Origin: a virus
IMG/VR virus record: IMGVR_UViG_3300035168_000194
Coordinates: 1 to 45,969 of that record
Length of the DNA: 45,969 nucleotides
Strand: one strand, 5' to 3'
Made by a program: the position numbers and the translations under genes. This document shows positions 1-40,220 of this stretch, one piece after another. Position 1 is the stretch's first letter. Each line of letters opens with the position of its first letter. The notes under the pieces are model-generated. The model was not told where the DNA came from and made no database searches. It saw only the letters and a program-made list of their open reading frames with translations.

Positions 1-560
1 TCCTCGAGCGCGAAGAGCGGCGAATAGGCGCCGCGCAGCCGGTCGAGTTCCACGCCATAGGCGGCGATATCGGCGGCGCGGCGTTCGGCGCCGAAATCGT
101 CGCGCACGCCGAGCCGCTCATTGAGCGGAGACTGCAGCTGCGTGACCGCCACGCCGCGCTGCTTCTCATAGGAGGCGGAGAGCCGATCGACGGCATTGGC
201 CGCCTCGGAATAGCTGATCGCGCCCTTGCGGGCGGCGTCGGAAATCTCGGCGAGCGTCGCGAGATGGCGGTCCTCGAGCGCGAAGAGCGGCGAATAGGCG
301 CCGCGCAGCCGATCCAGCTCGGCCCCATAAGCGGCGATATCGGCGGCGCGGCGTTCGGCGCCGAAATCGTCGCGCACGCCGAGCCGGGCGTTGAGCGGCG
401 CCTGCAGCTGCACGACCGCCGCGCCGCGCTGCTTCTCATAAGAGGCGGAGAGCCGATCGACCGCGCCCGTCGCCTCGGAATAGCTCAGACTGCCCTTGCG
501 CAGCTCGTCATGCACCTCTCGCAGTGATGCGAGGTGCTTCTGCTCGAGATCGAACAGCGG
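1..560. repeat. 270-bp (90-codon) tandem repeat in the tape measure gene
   Basis: The string tcctcgagcgcgaagagcgg occurs at 1 and at 271, and a diverged copy starts at 541, so the period is exactly 270 bp. The first two copies are nearly identical at the DNA level, which suggests recent duplication. Confidence 0.85.
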
Positions 561-20252: not shown

Positions 20253-21028
20253 GGCCCGCCGCCGGGAGCCATCTCCTCCTCCACGCAGGCCAGCCACGCC
20301 GCATAGCGCGCATCGAGCGCGCGCCAGCGCGCGCGCGCCGCCGCATCCGCATCCAGCTCCTTTCGGCTCGCGACGCCGAGCCTGGCGCGCAGCTCCGCAG
20401 CCGCGGCCTTTGCCCCCTCGACCCCGAGCCATCGCTGAAACGCCGGCTCGCCGCAGCGCATCGCGGCCCGCATGGCGATCGGAAAGCGCGGCCCGACCCG
20501 GGCCGGCGGACGCGCCGGGCCGCTCTCCGGCACGGTCTCCGGCACGGTCTCCGGCGCGGTCTCCGGCCCGGTCTCCGGCCCGGTCTCCGGCGCGGTCTCC
20601 GGCGCGGTCTCCCGCCGCGCTTCGCCGTCGCTCTTCCGCGCCGCCGCCGAGCCGCCCGGCCGCGCCATGCAGCGCAGCTCATATTCGCGCGCATGCGCCC
20701 AGCGCAGCGTCTCGGCCGCCGCCTCGAGCGCGCGGCCGAGATAATCGCGCTCGACGGCCCGCGCCGGCGGCGCCGCCGCGCGCAGCACGATTAGGCGCGC
20801 CGCCGCGACGCAGCGCGCCTGCTCCCGCGGCGAGACCTCCTGCGTCGGCAAGGCCAGCGCCGCCAGCGCCGCGCGCTGCGCCTCGATCCACGCCAGCATC
20901 CGCGCCGCATCGGCGAGCCCCGCCGCGAGCGCGTCGCGCGCCTCCCCGCGCTCCGGCGGCCGCGCCGCGCCGCCCGCGACGCGCCACGCGGTTTCGACGC
21001 ATCGGATGCGCTCGGCGAGCGGGATCAC
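20249..21028 (-). CDS. Prophage protein with ETxP repeat linker, unknown function
   Basis: A 259-residue protein starting at GTG 21028 ([20 protein letters not shown]), overlapping the upstream stop as GTGA. Residues 1-135 are helical and Ala/Arg-rich (YLGRALEAAAETLRWAHARE). A linker of eight ETAP/ETGP/ETVP-type tetrapeptides follows. The C-terminal part, RFPIAMRAAMRCGEPAFQRW, LGVEGAKAAAAELRARLGVA, SRKELD, looks like a small DNA- or protein-binding helical domain. I cannot assign a function. Confidence 0.55.
   Translation of the reverse strand: MIPLAERIRCVETAWRVAGGAARPPERGEARDALAAGLADAARMLAWIEAQRAALAALALPTQEVSPREQARCVAAARLIVLRAAAPPARAVERDYLGRALEAAAETLRWAHAREYELRCMARPGGSAAARKSDGEARRETAPETAPETGPETGPETAPETVPETVPESGPARPPARVGPRFPIAMRAAMRCGEPAFQRWLGVEGAKAAAAELRARLGVASRKELDADAAARARWRALDARYAAWLACVEEEMAPGGGP
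20521..20616. repeat. 12-bp tandem repeat (cggtctccggcN), 8 units
   Basis: Eight contiguous 12-bp units encode the ETxP linker of the gene on the minus strand. First and last units are slightly diverged. A copy-number-variable coding minisatellite is likely. Confidence 0.85.
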
Positions 21029-21318
21029 CTTTCCCCGCCCTCGTGATCTTTCACGGAACGCCACCCGAGCAGCTCGCGCTGCAGACGCTCGCCGATCCGC
21101 GCCGCGACATCGCAATGCGCCTGGTCGACGCCATAGGTGGTCATATGCTCGCCATGCGGCGCCGGCTTCTCGCCGACGCGGCGCGCATAGATGATCACCT
21201 GGTCATAGCCATGTTCCTCGGCGATGCGCTTCGCCGCCGCGATCGGAATCGGCTTCATCACCCGCGCCGCCCGCGCCGCCCGCGCCGCCCGCGCGCTCGT
21301 CTTGCGTGGCTCATTCAT
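21025..21318 (-). CDS. Conserved small prophage protein
   Basis: A 97-residue protein: [20 protein letters not shown] (three 3-residue repeats), then [59 protein letters not shown]. The second part is a family frequent in alphaproteobacterial phages (GYDQVxxxAR and HxTTYGxxxxHCxVAAxIG), function unknown. ATG 21318 overlaps the end of the MT-A70 gene. Confidence 0.7.
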
Positions 21319-22324
21319 TCCCGTGACCCTCCGCCTCATTGCCCCACGCGTCCCACCCCGGCCGCGGGGCTCCGCGCCGGTTCAATTCGATCTTGGGAAG
21401 CGTCGGGAAGTAGATTTCGATCATCTCGGCGAAGACATCCGGCTTCGCCGAATGCTCGGCGAGCGGCGCCTCGATCGCCGAGGGCAGCTGCAGCCCCATG
21501 GCCGGGGCCGGCACATCGCCGCGCACGCCGAGCAGCAGCAGCTCATGCTTGTTGCGCCACCAATAGCCCGTGCCGATCCGATCCTTGATCCACACGCAAT
21601 GCGACTTGTAGGTAAAGCCCCAGGCCGCCAGCGTCGCGAGGCCTTCGCGAAGCATGGGCGCCGTGGCCCAGCAGAAGAGCGCGCAATCCTCCGCGGCGAT
21701 CGACGCCACATCGCGCGCGAGGATCGCCGCGAGATCGGAGGTCGGATAATGATTATCCGCCGCGCGATCCATTCCCGTCTCGCGCGACCACACCTCGAAG
21801 CGCCATTCGGGATCGGCATAGATCACGCCATAGCGCCGCTCGGGCAGCGCGCGCTGCGCCGCCCCGAGCTCCGCCTCGCGCGCGGCGCGACGATCCTTCT
21901 TTTCTGCCTGCCGCTCGGCCCGCGTCGCGACCACCGATCGCTCGACCTCGCGCGCGGTCGCGGCGAGCTTCGCCTCGAAATCTTCCGCGCGCAGATCGGC
22001 GAGCTTCTGCCAGCGCGAGGATTGCGACTTCGAGACGCCGAGATCGTCGAGCTTCACGGTCGCATCGCGCGACCGTGATCTTCGATCGCCGCCGGCGCCG
22101 GCGTCGCGCTCGCCGCGCTCGGCCATCTCGCGCAGCAGCTCGCCGGCGCGCCGCTCGGCCCGCAGCCGGATCTCGAAAGCCTGCCGCAGCAGATCGCCAT
22201 TGCGCGCGATCCGCGCCGCCGCGCCCACCGCCGCCGCATGGTCGCGAATGGCCTGCACCTCATCGACCCGATGCGCCTCGGCGAGCGCCCGGCAAGCCTC
22301 CTCATATCGGACGAGCGCGCTCAC
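21311..22324 (-). CDS. MT-A70-type adenine-N6 DNA methyltransferase
   Basis: A 337-residue protein. The N-terminal 150 residues are a helical domain with a HTH-like [20 protein letters not shown], seen in phage methylases that link ParB/HTH-like regions to the enzyme. The catalytic part shows [16 protein letters not shown] (DPEW at 171-174 in place of DPPW), [44 protein letters not shown] and [19 protein letters not shown], the standard order of this class. GTG at 22324 is the start. It probably methylates phage DNA to escape restriction. It follows a 300-bp repeat-bearing gap. Confidence 0.88.
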
Positions 22325-22460: not shown

Positions 22461-22608
22461 CCCTTTCATCCCATGGCGAGCATTTTCGGCGAGACGGCTC
22501 CGCGCCTGTCAAGGACGCGCGCCGCAGGCGCGCGCCGCCGCAGGCGGTGCTTCGCATCCTTGACAGGCGCGGACCGCTCGCCACACGCGCCGCCATAGGA
22601 TGCAAGGG
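22461..22608. repeat. Nested-palindrome element, copy A
   Basis: 148 bp with terminal inverted repeats CCCTTTCATCC/GGATGCAAGGG (one mismatch), inner perfect arms CGCGCCTGTCAAGGA (22501-22515) and TCCTTGACAGGCGCG (22557-22571), and a core with the order CGCGCGCC...GCTTCGCA. The outer flanks match copy B at 27005-27143 in the same orientation, but the core is reversed. Confidence 0.8.
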
Positions 22609-22637
22609 CAGGACTGGAGGAAGGGGCAGGGGAGCGC

Positions 22638-24434
22638 TCACATCGCCTCCCTTCCGCGCAGCGCCGCATCGAGCCGCGCGCCCACCCATGCGAAGACGGG
22701 GCGCGCCCAGCTATTGCCGATTGCGGCATAGCGCGGCCCGTCCGCCGCCGGCGCGCCGCGCGTCTCGATCGCGGTCCAGCCGTCGGGCATGCCCTGCAAG
22801 CGCTCGCATTCGAGCGGCGTGAGGCGTCGCACGGCCCAATGCTCGGCGACATAGGAACGCGACGAGCCGCCGCTCGCGGCGCGCAGATTGGCGGTGTCGT
22901 GCGGGCCTTCGAATTGCGCGCCGCCCTCGCGGCCACGGAGGTCATAGGCGACTGCCCACGGCTTCACGGTCTCGAGCGCGCCCGTGCTGTCCGTGAACAC
23001 TGCCGGCGGTCGCGCATAGCCGCGCCCATCGTCGCCGCGGAACCGATCCTGGAACGCCACCGCCGGCGGATGCGCGCTCGCCGAGAGCGGATGCGACGGC
23101 CCGCCCGGCTGCGGATTGCATCGGTTCTCCGGATGCGTGATCTTCGTCGTGTCGAAGCAGATCGGCGCCTCTATGATCGGATTGAGCAGCCCAGCGGCAT
23201 TGCCGCCTTTCGCGCCCTTTGAGCGCTGCCAATAGGCGGTCAGAGTGTCGGCGACATGCTGGACGATTAGGCACCCGTCACGCCCAGGACCGTCGCCTTT
23301 CGGCGTTCCGGCGCCGAGCGTCGGCGCCACGCCGTCGACGACAAAGGTCTCGCTCTCGAAATCGAGCCGCCCGGCCGGCCCGCCATGCGCGTTCAGCGCC
23401 GCAGCGACCTCTATCTCTCCGCTGCAATTGTTCCCGCCGAATGCTCGTGGCCGCACCATTCGCATGTCGGCCACCACGTCGCCGCATTGTGCTCGCTGCA
23501 GCTCTCGCAGAGGAAGTGCGGCGCCATCGCGTTCGACGAGAAGATTCTCGGCGGTGTCTGCGTCATTCCGCCATCCGCCACTGCCCGGAGAGCCCGCGCC
23601 AAGAGGGCGGGCAATTCCTTCCCGCGCGCCTCGGCCCTTCGCAATACCCCCGCGCAGGCCTTTGGGCTCAAATAATACTTCGGCGGGATCGGCCCCGTTT
23701 CCAAAATCTCCGACAAGGACGACGCGCTCGCGTCGTTGGGGCACGCCGAAATGTTGAGCGTCGAGAACCCGCCATGCCGCCCGTCCGAGAGGCCCGGCAA
23801 CCAGACCCGCGCGCGGCCATCGGGGCACATGACCTTCAGCGCGGTCGATAAATTCTCCGGTCTCGTTTCCGTCGTCGTCCTTGACGGCGATGCGCTCGGC
23901 ATCTCGCCATCGCCAGACGGAGGAGCTTTTCCCGCGGCGCGGGCGCTCACTCGGAAGCAGGGGATCATCTGCGCCGACAAGCGCTCCCAGGAAACAGCCG
24001 AAGGCGTTGTCCTCAAGGCTGAGGATTCCGGGCACGTTTTCCCAAACAACGTTTCGAAGTCCGGCATGTTCGACGAGCTCGTGAGCGAGGAGGGCGAAGG
24101 CGAGAGTGAGATTGCCGCGCGCATCGGCGAGCGAGCGACGCCGGCCGGCGACAGAGAAGGCCTGGCAGGGCGTTCCGCCGCACAGCACGTCGACGCGGCC
24201 GACCGCGCGCGGATCGATCGTCGTGAAGTCGCCGAAATTCGGCGGCGCGTTGCGCGACAGCGGCTCGTCCGGAAGATTGGAGCCGAAGCGCGCCGCCAGC
24301 ACGGCGGACGGGAACGTGGCGATCTCCGCGAAGCCCGCCGCCGTCCAGCCGAGCGGTCCGAATGCCAGCGACGCCGCCTCTATGCCGGAGCAGATCGAGA
24401 GGAAGCGGATCGGATCGACGGCGCGCGCGCTCAC
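22638..24434 (-). CDS. DNA cytosine-C5 methyltransferase
   Basis: A 598-residue protein. Motif I: FLSICSGIEAASLAF (11-25); motif IV: GGTPCQAFS with catalytic Cys90; motif VI: VVWENVPGIL (about 129-138); motif VIII: HFGVPQRRERVVLVG; motifs IX-X near the C-terminus: RRLTPLECERLQGMPDGWT and YAAIGNSWARPVFAWVG. The long section between VIII and IX (about 300 residues) is the target recognition region and is larger than usual. GTG 24434 overlaps the Dam stop as GTGA. Likely protects phage DNA; no matching restriction enzyme is seen nearby. Confidence 0.93.
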   Translation of the reverse strand: MSARAVDPIRFLSICSGIEAASLAFGPLGWTAAGFAEIATFPSAVLAARFGSNLPDEPLSRNAPPNFGDFTTIDPRAVGRVDVLCGGTPCQAFSVAGRRRSLADARGNLTLAFALLAHELVEHAGLRNVVWENVPGILSLEDNAFGCFLGALVGADDPLLPSERPRRGKSSSVWRWRDAERIAVKDDDGNETGEFIDRAEGHVPRWPRAGLVAGPLGRAAWRVLDAQHFGVPQRRERVVLVGDFGNGADPAEVLFEPKGLRGGIAKGRGAREGIARPLGAGSPGSGGWRNDADTAENLLVERDGAALPLRELQRAQCGDVVADMRMVRPRAFGGNNCSGEIEVAAALNAHGGPAGRLDFESETFVVDGVAPTLGAGTPKGDGPGRDGCLIVQHVADTLTAYWQRSKGAKGGNAAGLLNPIIEAPICFDTTKITHPENRCNPQPGGPSHPLSASAHPPAVAFQDRFRGDDGRGYARPPAVFTDSTGALETVKPWAVAYDLRGREGGAQFEGPHDTANLRAASGGSSRSYVAEHWAVRRLTPLECERLQGMPDGWTAIETRGAPAADGPRYAAIGNSWARPVFAWVGARLDAALRGREAM

Positions 24435-25285
24435 TCCGCCGCCTCCGCGAACAATCGCCGCTGCGGCGCGGCGCGCATCGCATTTGGGCTGAGCCAGAGA
24501 CATTCGACGCGCGGCCGCGCGCCATCGGCATAGGTCTCCCGCTCCACCCGCGTCCAATCCCCGAGCGCCTCGTCATAGAGCGCGCTGCGATAGCCGCTGA
24601 TCGCGACCATGCCCCGCAGGTTTCGCGCAATCGCGAGCAGCCGCTCATGCCCCTCCCGCGTCATCTCATGCTCGTAATCGCCGCCGGCGTCGCGCGTCTC
24701 CGGCAGATATGGCGGGTCGAGATAGTGGAGCGTCTCCGGCCCGTCGTGCTGCGCGATCACATCGAGAGCGGGCCGGTTCTCGATCACGACGCCGCGCAGC
24801 CGCTCGACGATCGCCGGGAGCGCGTCCGGGAAATTGCGCCAGTCGCCGGCGGGAGTCGTCCCGCTTCGATTCGAATTGGCGCGAAAGCCGGTCGCGCGCC
24901 CATGCGCGTTAGACCCGAACCCCTGGAAGCAGACGACGAGCATGCGGCGCGCGCGCTCGACTTCGTCGCCGTCGCGTTCATGGCTCGCGACGAATTCCTC
25001 ACGCGCGAAAGGCGTCAATTGGAGCGCCCGCGCGAGCCGCGCCGCATTCGCCTCGTCGCGCAGCACGCGAAACAGGTTCACGACGCGCCCGTCGAGATCA
25101 TTATAGACCTCGGCATAGACGCGCGGCTTGCGCAGCAGCACGCTGCCGCCGCCTCCATAGGGCTCGACATAGACGCGATGCGGCGGAAGATGCGCGATGA
25201 TCCAAGGCGCGAGCCGCCACTTGCCGCCATGCCAACGCACGACGGGACGCGCGACCGACGAGAGAGATTGAGATGACGCGCTCAA
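24431..25285 (-). CDS. Dam-like D12-class DNA adenine methyltransferase
   Basis: A 284-residue enzyme. VRWHGGKWRLAPWIIAHLPP (17-36) is the AdoMet-binding start of D12-class enzymes, YVEPYGGGGSVLLRK (39-53) is motif I, and LHYLDPPYLPETR (about residue 190) is catalytic motif IV with DPPY. VCFQGFGSNAHGR is typical of the phage branch of this family. ATG overlaps the HNH-like stop; GTGA couples it to the C5 enzyme. It probably modifies adenine in a short phage-genome motif. Confidence 0.92.
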   Translation of the reverse strand: MSASSQSLSSVARPVVRWHGGKWRLAPWIIAHLPPHRVYVEPYGGGGSVLLRKPRVYAEVYNDLDGRVVNLFRVLRDEANAARLARALQLTPFAREEFVASHERDGDEVERARRMLVVCFQGFGSNAHGRATGFRANSNRSGTTPAGDWRNFPDALPAIVERLRGVVIENRPALDVIAQHDGPETLHYLDPPYLPETRDAGGDYEHEMTREGHERLLAIARNLRGMVAISGYRSALYDEALGDWTRVERETYADGARPRVECLWLSPNAMRAAPQRRLFAEAAE

Positions 25286-25680
25286 TCCGCCGCCCTCCCG
25301 CGCGCCGCCTCGCGCTCCACCGCGGCGAGCGTCTCCGTCCGCAGCATCGCCAGCGCGTCGGCATGGGCGCGCAGCGCCGCCTCCACCGCGCCGATATTGC
25401 GCACGCCCGCGAGCAGATCCTCGACGCCGAGCCCGGCCAGCATCACCGCGGCCCGCGCCACCATCTCCTGCGTCGCGACCTCATGGCCGCGCAGATGATT
25501 GCACGCGGCATGCGCCGGATAGACCAGCCCGAGCCCATGCGCGCCGCGCGCGCCCCGCGAGACCACGACCGGCGCGAGATGATCGGCGGAGCGATCGCCG
25601 GCGATCGCGCCGCCGCAGATCACGCAGACATCGGGAAAGCGCCAGCAGGCGCGCCGCGCGGCGCGCGAGCGATAGGTCAC
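25282..25680 (-). CDS. HNH-endonuclease-like zinc protein
   Basis: A 132-residue protein. FPDVCVICGGAIAGDRSADH has a CxxC and a D-H pair; LVYPAHAACNHLRG has the second metal-site pair and the HxxCN of HNH/McrA-type folds. The middle VVVSRGARGAHGLG gives the expected spacing. The C-terminal half is helical. HNH proteins cut DNA; here the His catalytic candidate is in ADHL. Overlaps Dam as ATGA. Whether it is active is uncertain. Confidence 0.65.
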   Translation of the reverse strand: MTYRSRAARRACWRFPDVCVICGGAIAGDRSADHLAPVVVSRGARGAHGLGLVYPAHAACNHLRGHEVATQEMVARAAVMLAGLGVEDLLAGVRNIGAVEAALRAHADALAMLRTETLAAVEREAARGRAAD

Positions 25681-25880
25681 GGCGCGCCTCCCTCACGCTC
25701 CGCCCTCGCGAGAGCGGCGACGATCTCGCCGACGGTCAGCCCCGCCGGCAGCCGGCGCAGCACGGCGAGCAGGACGCGCCGCACTTCCGCGACGCTCCGC
25801 CGCCGCCGGAATTTCGCGCCGGCGCGATCGGTCGCGACCCCGCGTCCCGCCGCGAGCGCCTCGCTCAGCAATTCGCGCAT
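25677..25880 (-). CDS. Small HTH-like protein (67 aa)
   Basis: Starts MRELLSEALAAGRGVATDRA; the rest GAKFRRRRSVAEVRRVLLAV, LRRLPAGLTVGEIVAALARA looks like a compact winged helix. The stop overlaps the HNH-like start as ATGA; the start lies inside the last 16 nt of the Nudix gene. Function unknown. Confidence 0.5.
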   Translation of the reverse strand: MRELLSEALAAGRGVATDRAGAKFRRRRSVAEVRRVLLAVLRRLPAGLTVGEIVAALARAEREGGAP

Positions 25881-26386
25881 CCAGGGCCTCCGTCGCGCGT
25901 CTCGGCGCCTCCCGTTCGCGCCCATCCTCGCCCCGCCGCCGGTCCATGCACGGTGAGGGTGAAGGGCGCGATGATCTCCTCGACGAGCGCATGCCGCGCG
26001 AGCGGGACGAGGTAGGCGAGATTGGGAACGAGCTCGGCCGCGCCGCAGCGGATCGAGAGAACGCTCCGCCGCACGAGCTCCTCGTCGGCCTGCGTCGCCG
26101 CCTCGCGGAACGCGGGCCCGCGATCGGCGAACACATCGACCCAGGCGTCCGGGAAGCGCAGCCGCACGACCCGCTTCCATGTCTCCGCGGGGATGAGGAC
26201 GCCCGCCTCCTCGCGCATCTCGCGCTCCATGGCGGCGGCGGCGATCTCGCCCGGCTCGAGCTTTCCGCCGATCCCATTGAGCAGCCCGCTCATCCACGCC
26301 GGCCGCCGCTTGCGGATCAGCAGCACATGCTCCGCCGCCGCGTCGAAGAGAAAGCCGAGCGCATAGCGCGTCTCGTCGCCCGTCAT
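25865..26386 (-). CDS. Nudix hydrolase
   Basis: A 173-residue protein with a full Nudix box: GKLEPGEIAAAAMEREMREE followed by AGV (about 41-63; G-x5-E-x7-REMREEAG). It hydrolyses nucleoside diphosphates linked to another group, using Mg2+. The start MTGDETRYALGFLFDAAAEH and LLIRKRRPAWMSGLLNGIG are typical of MutT-type small enzymes. It may clean damaged nucleotides or process NAD/NAD-like signals. It sits in the methylase operon. Confidence 0.88.
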   Translation of the reverse strand: MTGDETRYALGFLFDAAAEHVLLIRKRRPAWMSGLLNGIGGKLEPGEIAAAAMEREMREEAGVLIPAETWKRVVRLRFPDAWVDVFADRGPAFREAATQADEELVRRSVLSIRCGAAELVPNLAYLVPLARHALVEEIIAPFTLTVHGPAAGRGWARTGGAETRDGGPGCANC

Positions 26387-26973
26387 CGTCCCGCTCCTCT
26401 CGCGCGATCGAGCGCGCTGCGGCCCGGCGGCGGATCGCCGAGCAGCTGCGCCGCGCCGGGCCCGAGGGGCCGCGACAAGAAGCGCCGCGACGGCAGCACA
26501 GGCGCCGAGGCCCTCGGCCCGGCGACGACGCGCAGGATCGGGACGCTTTCGCGCGGCTCTCGCGCGCCGGCGTCCTCGCCCTCCGTCGCCTCATCCGCGA
26601 TCGACGCCCGCACGCGAAAGGCGCGCAGCCCATCGGCGACCGCCGCCTCGCGCGCCGCCGTCAGCCAATGCCCGCGATGCGAGGAGCGCGCGCGGGCGCG
26701 AAACTCGCCGAGAACGGAAATGGCGCGCAGCGCATCGAGCGGGTCGAAGCCGACGAGCTCCGCCTGCTCGATCGAGCGCCCGGAGGGCTCGATCAGCCGC
26801 AGCCCGGCGAAGGCGAGAAAACGGATGCGCTTCTCATGATCGTCGAGCGCGCGCCGATCGTCATCGTCGCGCAGCAGAGCGGCGGCGAGGCGCTCGGCCT
26901 CGCGCGCCAGAGCGACGCTGACCTTGGCGCGAGTCTCGCAGGCGGTCAGGGGTTCGGTCGATTCACGGGTCAC
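26383..26973 (-). CDS. Uncharacterised helical protein
   Basis: A 196-residue protein from GTG 26973, chosen because GGGAGG lies 5 nt upstream; the ORF could be extended to 27069 but that would run through element B. VTRESTEPLTACETRAKVSV, RIRFLAFAGLRLIEPSGRSI, EQAELVGFDPLDALRAISVL, GEFRARARSSHRGHW. Mostly helical with a low-complexity C-terminus. No known family is recognised. It overlaps the Nudix gene as ATGA. Confidence 0.6.
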   Translation of the reverse strand: MTRESTEPLTACETRAKVSVALAREAERLAAALLRDDDDRRALDDHEKRIRFLAFAGLRLIEPSGRSIEQAELVGFDPLDALRAISVLGEFRARARSSHRGHWLTAAREAAVADGLRAFRVRASIADEATEGEDAGAREPRESVPILRVVAGPRASAPVLPSRRFLSRPLGPGAAQLLGDPPPGRSALDRARGAGR

Positions 26974-27004
26974 AGGCGCCTCCCACACGAATGCGTCGCA
27001 AAGA

Positions 27005-27143
27005 CCCTTGCATCCCATGGCGAGCATTTTCGGCGAGACGGCTTCGATCGTGTCAAGGATGCGAAGCACCGCCTGCGGCGGCGCGCGCCGAAGGCGCGCG
27101 TCCTTGACACGATCGAACCGCTCGCCACACTAGGATGCAAGGG
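27005..27143. repeat. Nested-palindrome element, copy B
   Basis: 139 bp with perfect 11-bp terminal inverted repeats CCCTTGCATCC/GGATGCAAGGG and inner perfect 17-bp arms TTCGATCGTGTCAAGGA (27043-27059) and TCCTTGACACGATCGAA (27101-27117). The core holds CGCGCGCC-gaa-GGCGCGCG. The core is the reverse complement of the core of copy A while the flanks agree. Confidence 0.85.
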
Positions 27144-27189: not shown

Positions 27190-27510
27190 TCAGCAATAAT
27201 CATCGTCGAAGCTCGACGGCCCGTCGGAAGCGATCGCGTCGACGATCGCCTCTAAGATCAAGTCGAGGTTGGCGAGACAGTCGAAGAGCGCGCCGGTCGC
27301 TTCGAACGGCGGCGACGTGATTCCGCACAGATGCTCCGGCGGCGGCGCATCGCGGTAGAGCACGATGCTCTCGATGTCGAATTCCGGCGGGTCGCCAGGA
27401 TCGCCGGGATATGACAGCGAGCCCATGTGAGCGGGTGAGCCGTGGCTCGTCACGGAAAACTCGACATCCGCGACGAAAGGGAACCCCATGAAGTTCATCT
27501 CGATCAGCAT
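27190..27510 (-). CDS. Small acidic prophage protein
   Basis: A 106-residue protein (MLIEMNFMGFPFVADVEFSV, SLSYPGDPGDPPEFDIESIV, then LNLDLILEAIVDAIASDGPS-like acidic end). It looks beta-rich, acidic, with two cysteines. The ATG is joined to the previous stop as TGATG. It resembles small proteins that neighbour phage replication genes, role unknown. Confidence 0.65.
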   Translation of the reverse strand: MLIEMNFMGFPFVADVEFSVTSHGSPAHMGSLSYPGDPGDPPEFDIESIVLYRDAPPPEHLCGITSPPFEATGALFDCLANLDLILEAIVDAIASDGPSSFDDDYC

Positions 27511-27818
27511 CACAGATCTCCGATATGCGCCTGCGGCGCCGGCGCGCAGACCGGAACGCGCCCATAGACCCGATCGGCCATCGCGCGGCGCGTTCCGGTC
27601 AGCTGCGCATGCAGCTCGGCGCTCTTCTCCGGCGACGCCCGGCGCAGAAGCTCGCAATCGCTCAGCTTCGCGACGCCCTCCGGCCACCCGCACCACATCA
27701 GCGCGTCGGACTCCGGATCGGCGGCGGCAACGATCCATTCTTCGCCCGATGGGCGATGCAGCACGACGTCACCGCAACGGATCGGGGCGTCTCCTTCCTT
27801 CGTTTCCGGCATCGTCAT
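27510..27818 (-). CDS. Small prophage protein with beta-barrel-like core
   Basis: A 102-residue protein: MTMPETKEGDAPIRCGDVVL, HRPSGEEWIVAAADPESDAL, MWCGWPEGVAKLSDCELLRR, then a helix. GDVVLHRPSGEEW... resembles a short SH3/KOW-like barrel in phage proteins. ATG 27818 has GAGG just upstream. Function unknown. Confidence 0.6.
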   Translation of the reverse strand: MTMPETKEGDAPIRCGDVVLHRPSGEEWIVAAADPESDALMWCGWPEGVAKLSDCELLRRASPEKSAELHAQLTGTRRAMADRVYGRVPVCAPAPQAHIGDL

Positions 27819-38912: not shown

Positions 38913-39145
38913 TGTCGCGTCGGGAGAGCCCCACTCGCAAGGATGTCCTCACCCGCTTGACGGCGGCGGAGATCGCCGCGCTCGAGGCGATGGCGAGCGC
39001 CGGCTCTCATGCCGAAGCGGCGAGCCGGATCGGACTGAGCGCGAAGACAATGAAATGCCGCTTCGCCTCGATCCGCGACAAGCTCGGGGCGTCTTCGACG
39101 CGGGAGGCGGTCGCAATGTGGCGAGGGGAGCCGGCGAATGGCTGA
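38912..39145 (+). CDS. LuxR/GerE-like HTH protein
   Basis: A 77-residue protein: RLTAAEIAALEAMASAGSHA, EAASRIGLSAKTMKCRFASI, RDKLGASSTREAVAMWRG, a full GerE HTH without any receiver domain. It shares the fold pattern of the preceding protein. TGATG joins it to that stop, and GAGGAG lies upstream. Confidence 0.7.
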   Translation: MSRRESPTRKDVLTRLTAAEIAALEAMASAGSHAEAASRIGLSAKTMKCRFASIRDKLGASSTREAVAMWRGEPANG

Positions 39146-40220
39146 GGCGAGCAAGATCGAATGGACGGACGCGACCGTCAATTTTTGGTGGGGCTGCACG
39201 AAGGTCAGCGCCGCATGCGATCACTGCTATGCGGAGACATGGGCGCGCCGCTTCAGTGGACAGCATTGGGGCGCGGAAGCGCCACGGCGCAAGATCAAGA
39301 CCGCGCGCGCGATGCTGGATCGTCTCGACAACGACTATTCAGAATGGGCGGCGGACTTCCATAGCGGCCATCTACCGGCTGGCTGCCGCTCCCGTCGTCG
39401 TGTGTTCTGCATGTCGATGGGCGACCTCTTCGACAAAGAGGTTCCGATCGAATGGTTCGTCGAGGCATGGCAGACGATAAAAGCTTGCGACCGTGTCGAC
39501 ATCATCATCGTGACCAAGCGCCTTTCGATGATCGAGCGCCGGCTCGGGGAAGCTGGCTTTACCGATTGGCCGCAGCACGCATGGTTGCTGACGAGCGTTC
39601 ACGATCAAGCGAGCGCTGATCGGGAGGGGCCTCGGCTGTTGGATCTGAAATCGAAGTTCGGCATTCCAGTCGTCGGCTTCTCGATAGAGCCGCTGCTCGG
39701 CCCGATCGATCTCACGCGGCCAATCGATATATCCGGGGATTATGAATGCTTTCTGTTGGGCGTCCCGCCCGAACGCATCGAAGACTGCGAAGGGGATGTC
39801 CCGCCACACCTCGACTGGATCATCGCTGGCGGCGAGAGCGGCCCCGACGCGCGGCCGGCGCACCCCGATTGGCTCCGTGGCCTGCGCGATCAGTGCGCGG
39901 CGGCGGGCGTGCCGTTCTTCTTCAAGCAATGGGGCGAGTGGAAGCCGATCAGCGAAATGCCGGAGGCTGAATACGAGCAATTCTATCGCTCGAACAAGGT
40001 CGCGAAGTCGGGCGAGGATCAAGGCGATCTCGACGATATCTATGGCCGCAGATGCACGATCCCGACCGACGCCATCGGCTACACCGGCTTGCGAGGCGAC
40101 GCAGCGTTCCATGTCGTCGACGGCAAGGGCGGCATGATGATGTTCCGCGTCGGCCGCGCCCGCGCCGGCCGGACGCTCGACGGCGTCGAGCACAATGAAT
40201 TTCCGGAGCCGCGCGCATAG
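39138..40220 (+). CDS. Phage Gp37/Gp68 family (DUF5131) protein
   Basis: A 360-residue protein with the family opening SKIEWTDATVNFWWGCTKVS, AACDHCYAETWARRFSGQHW (a C-x6-C-x2-C cluster like radical-SAM-type proteins), then RRRVFCMSMGDLFDKEVP, IIIVTKRLSMIERRLG, WLLTSVHDQASADREGPRL, IIAGGESGPDARPAHPDWLR. The family is common on phages; enzymatic activity has been suggested from the cysteine cluster but is not known to me as proven. It overlaps the HTH gene by 8 nt. Confidence 0.9.
   Translation: MAEASKIEWTDATVNFWWGCTKVSAACDHCYAETWARRFSGQHWGAEAPRRKIKTARAMLDRLDNDYSEWAADFHSGHLPAGCRSRRRVFCMSMGDLFDKEVPIEWFVEAWQTIKACDRVDIIIVTKRLSMIERRLGEAGFTDWPQHAWLLTSVHDQASADREGPRLLDLKSKFGIPVVGFSIEPLLGPIDLTRPIDISGDYECFLLGVPPERIEDCEGDVPPHLDWIIAGGESGPDARPAHPDWLRGLRDQCAAAGVPFFFKQWGEWKPISEMPEAEYEQFYRSNKVAKSGEDQGDLDDIYGRRCTIPTDAIGYTGLRGDAAFHVVDGKGGMMMFRVGRARAGRTLDGVEHNEFPEPRA

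What the first reader, a model, noticed from the sequence alone, without database searches (positions are those of the whole stretch)
22461..27143. Two nested-palindrome elements with identical flanks but reversed cores
Elements at 22461-22608 and 27005-27143 share terminal inverted repeats and flanks in the same orientation, while the ~59-bp core between TGTCAAGGA and TCCTTGACA is reverse-complemented between them. The arms next to the core differ between copies yet stay perfectly complementary within each copy (CGCGCC/GGCGCG versus TTCGATCG/CGATCGAA), which indicates selection for the stem. This could be an invertible segment, a mobile REP/MITE-like element, or a transcription-processing hairpin.
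Basis: seen in the sequence. Interest (0 to 1): 0.7.

Follow-up and report, generated by a model that had tools for sequence, protein, structure and literature searches.

The report
Flipping palindromic repeats in a phage
Two hairpin-rich repeats in this phage genome belong to a scattered family of non-coding DNA palindromes found in the chromosomes of methane-oxidising-type bacteria; their middle part sits in either direction about equally often and, at matching sites in two related species, has been turned round or swapped, apparently because the DNA folds back on itself and not because it is a switch.

Summary
Elements at 22461-22608 and 27005-27143 have same-direction flanks and a 59-nt core that is 95% reverse-complementary between them. 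Both belong to a dispersed palindromic repeat of Beijerinckiaceae (no Rfam match, no description found), first matched in a Methylocystis MAG; I parsed 86 chromosomal copies from 10 genomes. The core is three abutting mini-hairpins between GTCAAkGA and TCmTTGAC. It lies in either orientation relative to the flanks (24:23). At orthologous sites in two congeneric genomes, core and flanks have been reversed relative to each other, or the core replaced by a different one in the opposite direction, with both arms changing together.

The structure looks like DNA, not RNA: 89% triloops, 79% of them GNA/TNC, C-G closing pairs, no G-U excess, and the three-hairpin fold favoured under DNA parameters. 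Y1 (REP-type) transposase is absent from the two richest genomes; neither phage copy has a terminator T-run. Best reading: a REP/MITE-like repeat whose nested inverted repeats let cores invert and be exchanged by template switching or ectopic gene conversion, and which has entered a phage; not a dedicated phase switch. The shared cloverleaf core inside unrelated palindromes is the novel part. How copies move is unknown.

The parts
22461..22608 (+). Element copy 1, full-length, core in order A-B-C; lies between a C5-methyltransferase gene (stop at 22638, - strand) and an MT-A70 gene (start at 22324, - strand)
22461..22498 (+). Left-type flank of copy 1 with outer repeat CCCTTTCATCC and GGCGAGACGG helix strand
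22499..22507 (+). Left arm of copy 1 (TCCGCGCCT), pairs perfectly with 22565-22573
22508..22515 (+). Conserved box GTCAAGGA, copy 1
22516..22534 (+). Hairpin module A CGCGCGCC(gca)GGCGCGCG, copy 1
22535..22547 (+). Hairpin module B CCGCC(gca)GGCGG, copy 1
22548..22556 (+). Hairpin module C TGC(ttc)GCA, copy 1 (complement of the GCGAAGC mini-hairpin)
22557..22564 (+). Conserved box TCCTTGAC, copy 1
22565..22573 (+). Right arm of copy 1
22574..22608 (+). Right-type flank of copy 1, ends GGATGCAAGGG
27005..27143 (+). Element copy 2, same flank direction, core in reversed order C-B-A, 9-nt deletion in right flank; in the gap between two - strand genes (27190-27738 and 26383 to about 26974)
27005..27042 (+). 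Left-type flank of copy 2
27043..27051 (+). Left arm of copy 2 (TTCGATCGT), pairs perfectly with 27109-27117
27052..27059 (+). Conserved box GTCAAGGA, copy 2
27060..27068 (+). Hairpin module C TGC(gaa)GCA, copy 2; contains GCGAAGC
27069..27081 (+). Hairpin module B CCGCC(tgc)GGCGG, copy 2
27082..27100 (+). Hairpin module A CGCGCGCC(gaa)GGCGCGCG, copy 2
27101..27108 (+). Conserved box TCCTTGAC, copy 2
27109..27117 (+). Right arm of copy 2
27118..27143 (+). Right-type flank of copy 2, ends GGATGCAAGGG

Best explanation
The two elements are copies of a dispersed, non-coding, intergenic palindromic repeat (about 140-150 bp, REP/MITE-like) of Beijerinckiaceae chromosomes that has entered this phage, presumably from its host (inferred). 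Each copy is a set of nested inverted repeats: outer ends (family consensus GCCATTCATC/GATGAATGGC), a GGCGAG helix, variable arms, then GTCAAkGA/TCmTTGAC enclosing three abutting ultra-stable DNA mini-hairpins, a cloverleaf when one strand folds. Shown: cores occur in both directions equally; at orthologous sites cores or flanks are reversed, or the core is replaced by another type in the opposite direction; both arms change together. Inferred mechanism: when the strand is single during replication or repair it folds, and polymerase template switching between arms (arm homogenisation, spacer inversion) or gene conversion between dispersed copies, paired in either direction through their palindromic arms, flips or swaps what lies between any inverted-repeat pair. 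No dedicated recombinase is needed. The elements are probably selfish or nearly neutral, tolerated at gene 3' ends. How new copies arise is not known.
For: Dispersed family: 21 hits (both strands, fragments included) in Methylocystis MAG G001; 12 of 397 family genomes at E<=1e-10; 86 chromosomal copies parsed. Orientation 24 ABC: 23 CBA, mixed in most multi-copy genomes. Orthologous sites between congeners G010 and G051: L145/L165, same core (36/39 nt) but flanks reversed around it; L136/L167, whole element reversed; L129/L152, L139/L146 and L131/L169, core of another type in the opposite direction inside conserved outer flank and neighbours; L108/L143 (G200/G176) unchanged apart from an added inner hairpin. 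Concerted arms: stem mismatch 0.22 within, 0.47 between copies, p=0.0002; box 0.020 versus 0.076. DNA signature: 131/147 triloops, 104 of these GNA/TNC (control 89/676, p=4e-51), 135/147 C-G closed; cloverleaf is the minimum-energy fold for 77/110 strands with DNA and 37/110 with RNA parameters; G-T versus A-C mismatches equal (4:6 and 19:17). Template switching is known to cause arm homogenisation and spacer inversion (PMC8604942; PMC8794818). Intergenic: 2 of 88 copies inside a predicted gene; 34 convergent versus 9 divergent, p=0.0002.
Against: In three of the five G010/G051 orthologous pairs the flipped core is also a different core, so those show exchange in reversed direction, not simple in-place inversion. 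The comparison is between species, so rate and intermediates are unseen. Arm concordance within G010 or G051 alone is weak for the stem (p=0.07-0.08) though clear for the box (p=0.004). The invariant GTCAAkGA box inside otherwise unrelated palindromes suggests recognition by some protein, which a purely passive model does not explain. No empty sites were recovered, so insertion itself is not demonstrated. The phage's host is not identified; its terminase is at most 46% identical to any found in the family sample.
Confidence: 0.66

Rival explanations
1. A structure-recognising enzyme (unidentified transposase or recombinase) reads GTCAAkGA plus the folded single strand and moves or replaces cores as cassettes inside existing palindromes, as proposed for IS1272 stem-loop replacement.
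For: The GTCAAkGA/TCmTTGAC box and three-hairpin core recur inside unrelated arms: phage contigs L195, L211, L245, L260, bacterial locus L266, second family in G067 with both core directions. Core type is replaced at orthologous sites while outer flanks stay. IS1272 is a precedent for replacing a target stem-loop (PMC5678879).
Against: No transposase gene was recognised between close copies (L128 holds truA next to fmt; L125 no recognised transposase, by reading the ORFs); Y1 transposase absent from the two richest genomes; inversion also occurs at the outer repeat level (L136/L167, L145/L165), which a box-specific enzyme would not do.
Confidence: 0.2
2. A dedicated invertible segment: a site-specific recombinase flips the core (or the 4.4 kb between the copies) as a phase-variation switch in the phage.
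For: Opposite core directions in the two copies; both directions common in chromosomes.
Against: The invertible part is 41 nt of hairpins with no promoter-like site found and no coding content; no recombinase among neighbouring genes tested; arms are not a constant site but differ from copy to copy; the copies are direct repeats at the flanks, so recombination between flanks would delete, not invert, the 4.4 kb (between the inverted cores it could invert it).
Confidence: 0.05
3. A functional RNA or transcription-end hairpin: the element is transcribed and acts in termination, mRNA 3' end protection or RNase III processing.
For: Enriched between convergent genes, depleted between divergent ones (34:9); RNA folding energy also far beyond shuffles (z about -11 to -13).
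Against: No T-run at either phage copy; no Rfam match; RNA minimum-energy folds usually do not show the conserved three-hairpin core; triloops with GNA/TNC are DNA-type; no G-U excess; no strand bias in co-directional gaps (20:19).
Confidence: 0.09

Closest known systems
REP / BIME / REPIN elements with RAYT (Y1) transposases
   Same: Short, intergenic, palindromic, dispersed, favouring gene 3' ends, mosaic
   Different: About 145 bp with a three-hairpin core; no GTAG tag at the foot; no Y1 transposase gene in the two genomes richest in copies
CGTC-tagged REPs of alphaproteobacteria (PMC3733652)
   Same: Alphaproteobacterial, palindromic, no dedicated transposase known
   Different: Those are 20-40 bp single palindromes with an unpaired CGTC foot; here the element is larger and nested, and the box is paired
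MITEs
   Same: Short non-coding element with terminal inverted repeats, many scattered copies, present in a phage
   Different: No parent transposase found; target-site duplications and empty sites not demonstrated; interior is structured and exchangeable
Template switching at quasi-palindromes (arm homogenisation and spacer inversion; PMC8604942, PMC8794818)
   Same: Predicts concerted arms and reversed spacers
   Different: Reported cases are mostly short loops or a few arm bases; here 41-nt structured cores and whole elements flip, and cores are swapped between copies
IS1272 stem-loop-replacing transposition (PMC5678879)
   Same: The content inside an inverted repeat is replaced while surroundings stay
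   Different: No IS or transposase is present in any copy seen here
Double-hairpin and related hairpin repeats of mitochondrial genomes (e.g. sponge RHE, PMC2800124, listed)
   Same: Hairpin-only repeats of unknown mobility mechanism
   Different: Different compartment; no GTCAAkGA box or three-hairpin core known to me; compared from abstract and general knowledge only

Membership tests
REP/RAYT (GTAG REPs) | GTAG (or variant) tetranucleotide at the foot of the hairpin | tested here: not met
   No conserved GTAG in the 51-copy alignment; outer ends are GCCATTCATC/GATGAATGGC
REP/RAYT (GTAG REPs) | Y1 transposase (RAYT) gene in the genome | tested here: not met
   PF01797 absent from G010 and G051, present in only 4 of 10 positive genomes
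REP in the broad sense | Intergenic, palindromic, repeated | tested here: met
   86 of 88 copies not inside a predicted gene; palindromic
REP in the broad sense | Length 20-40 bp | tested here: not met
   About 145 bp, deletion forms 69-101 bp
MITE | Terminal inverted repeats, no coding capacity | tested here: met
MITE | Target-site duplication and empty sites | not tested
MITE | Parent transposase with the same ends | tested here: inconclusive
   No recognised transposase between close copies; whole genomes not searched for other transposase families with these ends
Intrinsic terminator | G+C-rich stem followed by T-run | tested here: not met
   No terminator-like site at either phage copy
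Site-specific invertible switch | Constant recombination sites and a nearby invertase | tested here: not met
   Arms vary between copies, though the 8-nt box is constant; no recombinase among the neighbours tested by profile
Site-specific invertible switch | Mixed orientations within a clonal population | not testable with these tools
   No reads available
Known structured RNA | Match to an Rfam family | tested here: not met
   No match at the elements or in 14 chromosomal loci
Template-switching product | Arms homogenised within a copy; spacer reversed at an orthologous site | tested here: met

The most novel reading that the evidence does not exclude
The GTCAAkGA-bounded cloverleaf of three ultra-stable DNA mini-hairpins is a widespread, undescribed DNA structural cassette that spreads between unrelated palindromes, bacteria and phages as folded single-stranded DNA, recognised by an unidentified structure-specific enzyme.
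Probability: 0.22. Interest if true: 0.82.

Novelty: new variant of a known kind. Interest (0 to 1): 0.58.

Why it matters
It gives a natural, many-copy record of how inverted repeats flip and homogenise in bacterial genomes: one family, both core directions at equal frequency, and orthologous sites where the change can be read. It also warns that perfect compensatory changes in a stem need not mean selection on RNA. The recurrence of one box and one three-hairpin DNA fold inside unrelated palindromes, in phages and bacteria, is unexplained and directly testable.

Tried and rejected
RAYT/REP mobility: no Y1 transposase in the richest genomes. Intrinsic terminator: none at the elements. Known RNA: no Rfam match. 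Transposase between close copies: truA beside fmt in L128 and no recognised gene in L125. Exact flank patterns in viral contigs: none; plasmid and phage collections: none. A loose core pattern in viral contigs gave 72 stretches, mostly chance; only those with pairing boxes, pairing arms and three hairpins were kept. A class-wide pattern scan found 5 of 385 genomes, of which one besides G001 has the three-hairpin fold. Phage relatives for an empty-site comparison were too distant: no synteny around the elements, and none of the 15 related viral loci has a significant match to the element model. Possible orthologous pairs L138/L175 and L135/L170 were left out of the claims: the first is offset by tens of bases, the second has an unmatched right flank. 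A strict reading of L129/L152, L139/L146 and L131/L169 as simple in-place inversion was rejected because their module sequences differ too.
Full report
WHAT WAS CHECKED. The window is a 45,969-bp IMG/VR virus record, 69% G+C, with a lambda-type portal, a gpA-type terminase and a capsid/protease fusion. Their cores are the longest inverted pair of the window, 59 nt at 95%; the three differences all fall in one hairpin loop. The left flanks are identical and in the same direction. Copy 2 lacks 9 nt of the right flank that copy 1 and the chromosomal family have. Arms differ between copies but are perfectly paired within each. Folding energies lie 11 standard deviations below shuffles.

WHERE ELSE IT OCCURS. 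An exact 22-mer from the flank hit one place in the GTDB collection, a Methylocystis MAG. That genome holds 21 hits, counting both strands and fragments. Twelve of 397 genomes of its family have copies at E<=1e-10, with high numbers in two congeneric genomes, G010 (one 4.24-Mb contig) and G051. That the family is Beijerinckiaceae is my reading of the Methylocystis title; the tool names no families. I aligned 51 copies, built a model and parsed 86 chromosomal copies from ten genomes plus the two phage copies. Plasmid and phage collections gave nothing. No Rfam family matches. A text search for the core 12-mer found two papers on other subjects, and searches on palindromic repeats in this group found no description.

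ANATOMY. From outside in: ends TCAnA....GCCATTCATC and its partner; a GGCGAG helix with an asymmetric internal loop (ATTWTC on the left, CACAC or CATGC on the right, which gives each copy a direction); variable arms; box GTCAAGGA or GTCAATGA with its complement; then three hairpins with no spacer: A (C...G at the base), B (usually CCGCC(nnn)GGCGG) and C (T...A at the base). Some copies carry a further long palindrome inside module C (L108, L124, L159, L167), and short forms have lost the core (L113, L166, L173-L175, L177).

DIRECTION OF THE CORE. Among 49 copies with a clean three-module parse, 24 have A-B-C and 23 C-B-A relative to the flanks (2 undetermined). Reading most of the remaining cores by their first and last base gives 41 to 28 (my hand tally; p=0.15). 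Most genomes with several copies have both. The opposite directions of the two phage copies are therefore what two random members would often show.

ORTHOLOGOUS SITES. With elements masked, neighbouring genes of copies were compared between genomes. Between G010 and G051: at L145/L165 the same core (36 of 39 nt) keeps its direction while the flanks around it are exchanged, up to the outer repeat, whose left neighbour is identical over 14 nt; at L136/L167 the whole element is reversed; at L129/L152, L139/L146 and L131/L169 the core is reversed and also of another type, with both box strands changed together (GTCAATGA/TCATTGAC against GTCAAGGA/TCCTTGAC) in the last two, inside otherwise conserved outer sequence. 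L108/L143 (G200/G176) keeps direction. So inversion occurs at more than one repeat level, and cores are also exchanged between copies. An assembly artefact is unlikely for the pairs whose module sequences differ, but G051 is a fragmented assembly and the L145/L165 and L136/L167 cases deserve read-level confirmation.

DNA OR RNA. Within-copy arm mismatch is 0.22 against 0.47 between copies; for the box 0.020 against 0.076 (p=0.0002 each). In the arms, pair switches are G-C to T-A and C-G to T-A or A-T with few G-T intermediates; G-T and A-C mismatches are equal. Of 147 hairpins 131 have 3-nt loops and 135 are closed by C-G; 104 loops are GNA or its complement TNC, against 89 of 676 triloops outside the elements (p=4e-51). 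GNA loops on G-C stems form exceptionally stable DNA mini-hairpins, GCGAAGC being the classic (PMC4686876), and copy 2 carries it literally. With DNA parameters the three-hairpin fold is the minimum-energy structure of 77 of 110 strands, with RNA parameters of 37. Copies are related, so these counts are not independent; distinct modules alone give 58 of 70 triloops and 41 GNA/TNC.

CONTEXT. By a simple codon-composition gene caller, 34 copies lie between convergent genes, 39 between co-directional, 9 between divergent, 4 at contig edges, 2 inside an ORF; no strand preference in co-directional gaps. The two phage copies lie in gaps between co-directional genes. The gene caller is crude, so these are approximate.

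MECHANISM. Template switching between inverted-repeat arms homogenises the arms and can reverse the spacer (PMC8604942; PMC8794818). That explains concerted arms and reversed segments at every repeat level without a dedicated enzyme. Replacement by a different core type needs a second copy as donor, so I add ectopic gene conversion, which palindromic arms allow in either direction. Shown: pattern at orthologous sites, equal directions, concerted arms. Inferred: the polymerase or recombination step, and single-strand folding in the cell. Unknown: how new sites are colonised, and why the box is kept.

WIDER CORE. The box plus three hairpins occurs inside quite different arms in viral contigs L195, L211, L245 and L260, in bacterial locus L266, and in a second family in G067 where both directions are again seen. 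This is the strongest hint of something beyond a passive repeat, and the basis of the novel case. It is a handful of sequences found with one pattern.

VERDICT. A real, well-supported element family; ordinary in being a REP/MITE-like intergenic palindrome, unusual in its DNA cloverleaf core and its readable flipping. Not a member of RAYT-REPs (two defining features not met), not an intrinsic terminator, not a known RNA; MITE status undecided.

Noticed in passing
window 22609-27004: Between the two same-direction copies lie a C5-cytosine methyltransferase, a D12 adenine methyltransferase, an HNH-like gene, a NUDIX gene and an unknown gene; an MT-A70 methyltransferase is just outside (21311-22324). 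Recombination between the direct flanks could delete this block.
   Followed up: partly
window 1-540: A 270-bp tandem duplication at 82% identity at the start of the record (D1).
   Followed up: no
L140, L159, L161, L167, L168, L169 (and a variant in L139): A second palindrome (ACGCAGATAAGTTTACGCAATCTGCGTAAACTTATCTGCGT or variants) sits inside the core hairpins of some copies in G010 and G051, a palindrome nested in a palindrome.
   Followed up: partly
L108, L124, L144, L164, L179, L181, L182: Another inner insert related to CATAGCCCGT...ACGGGCGTTC...GAACGCCCTATGG in module C of copies in G200, G215 and G238.
   Followed up: no
L045 1502-1563 and L095 1503-1559 (G067): Second palindrome family with different long arms (CAATCCGTCATTGTTGGAACGC) but the same GTCAAGGA three-hairpin core, in both directions.
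   Followed up: partly
L195 12060-12116, L211, L245, L260, L266: GTCAAkGA three-hairpin cores inside unrelated arms in other phage contigs and one other bacterial genome.
   Followed up: partly
window 39138-40220: DUF5131 protein (phrog_2045), function unknown.
   Followed up: no
window 20503-20622: A 12-bp tandem repeat (CCGGCNCGGTCT), length a multiple of three, inside a predicted gene (D2).
   Followed up: no
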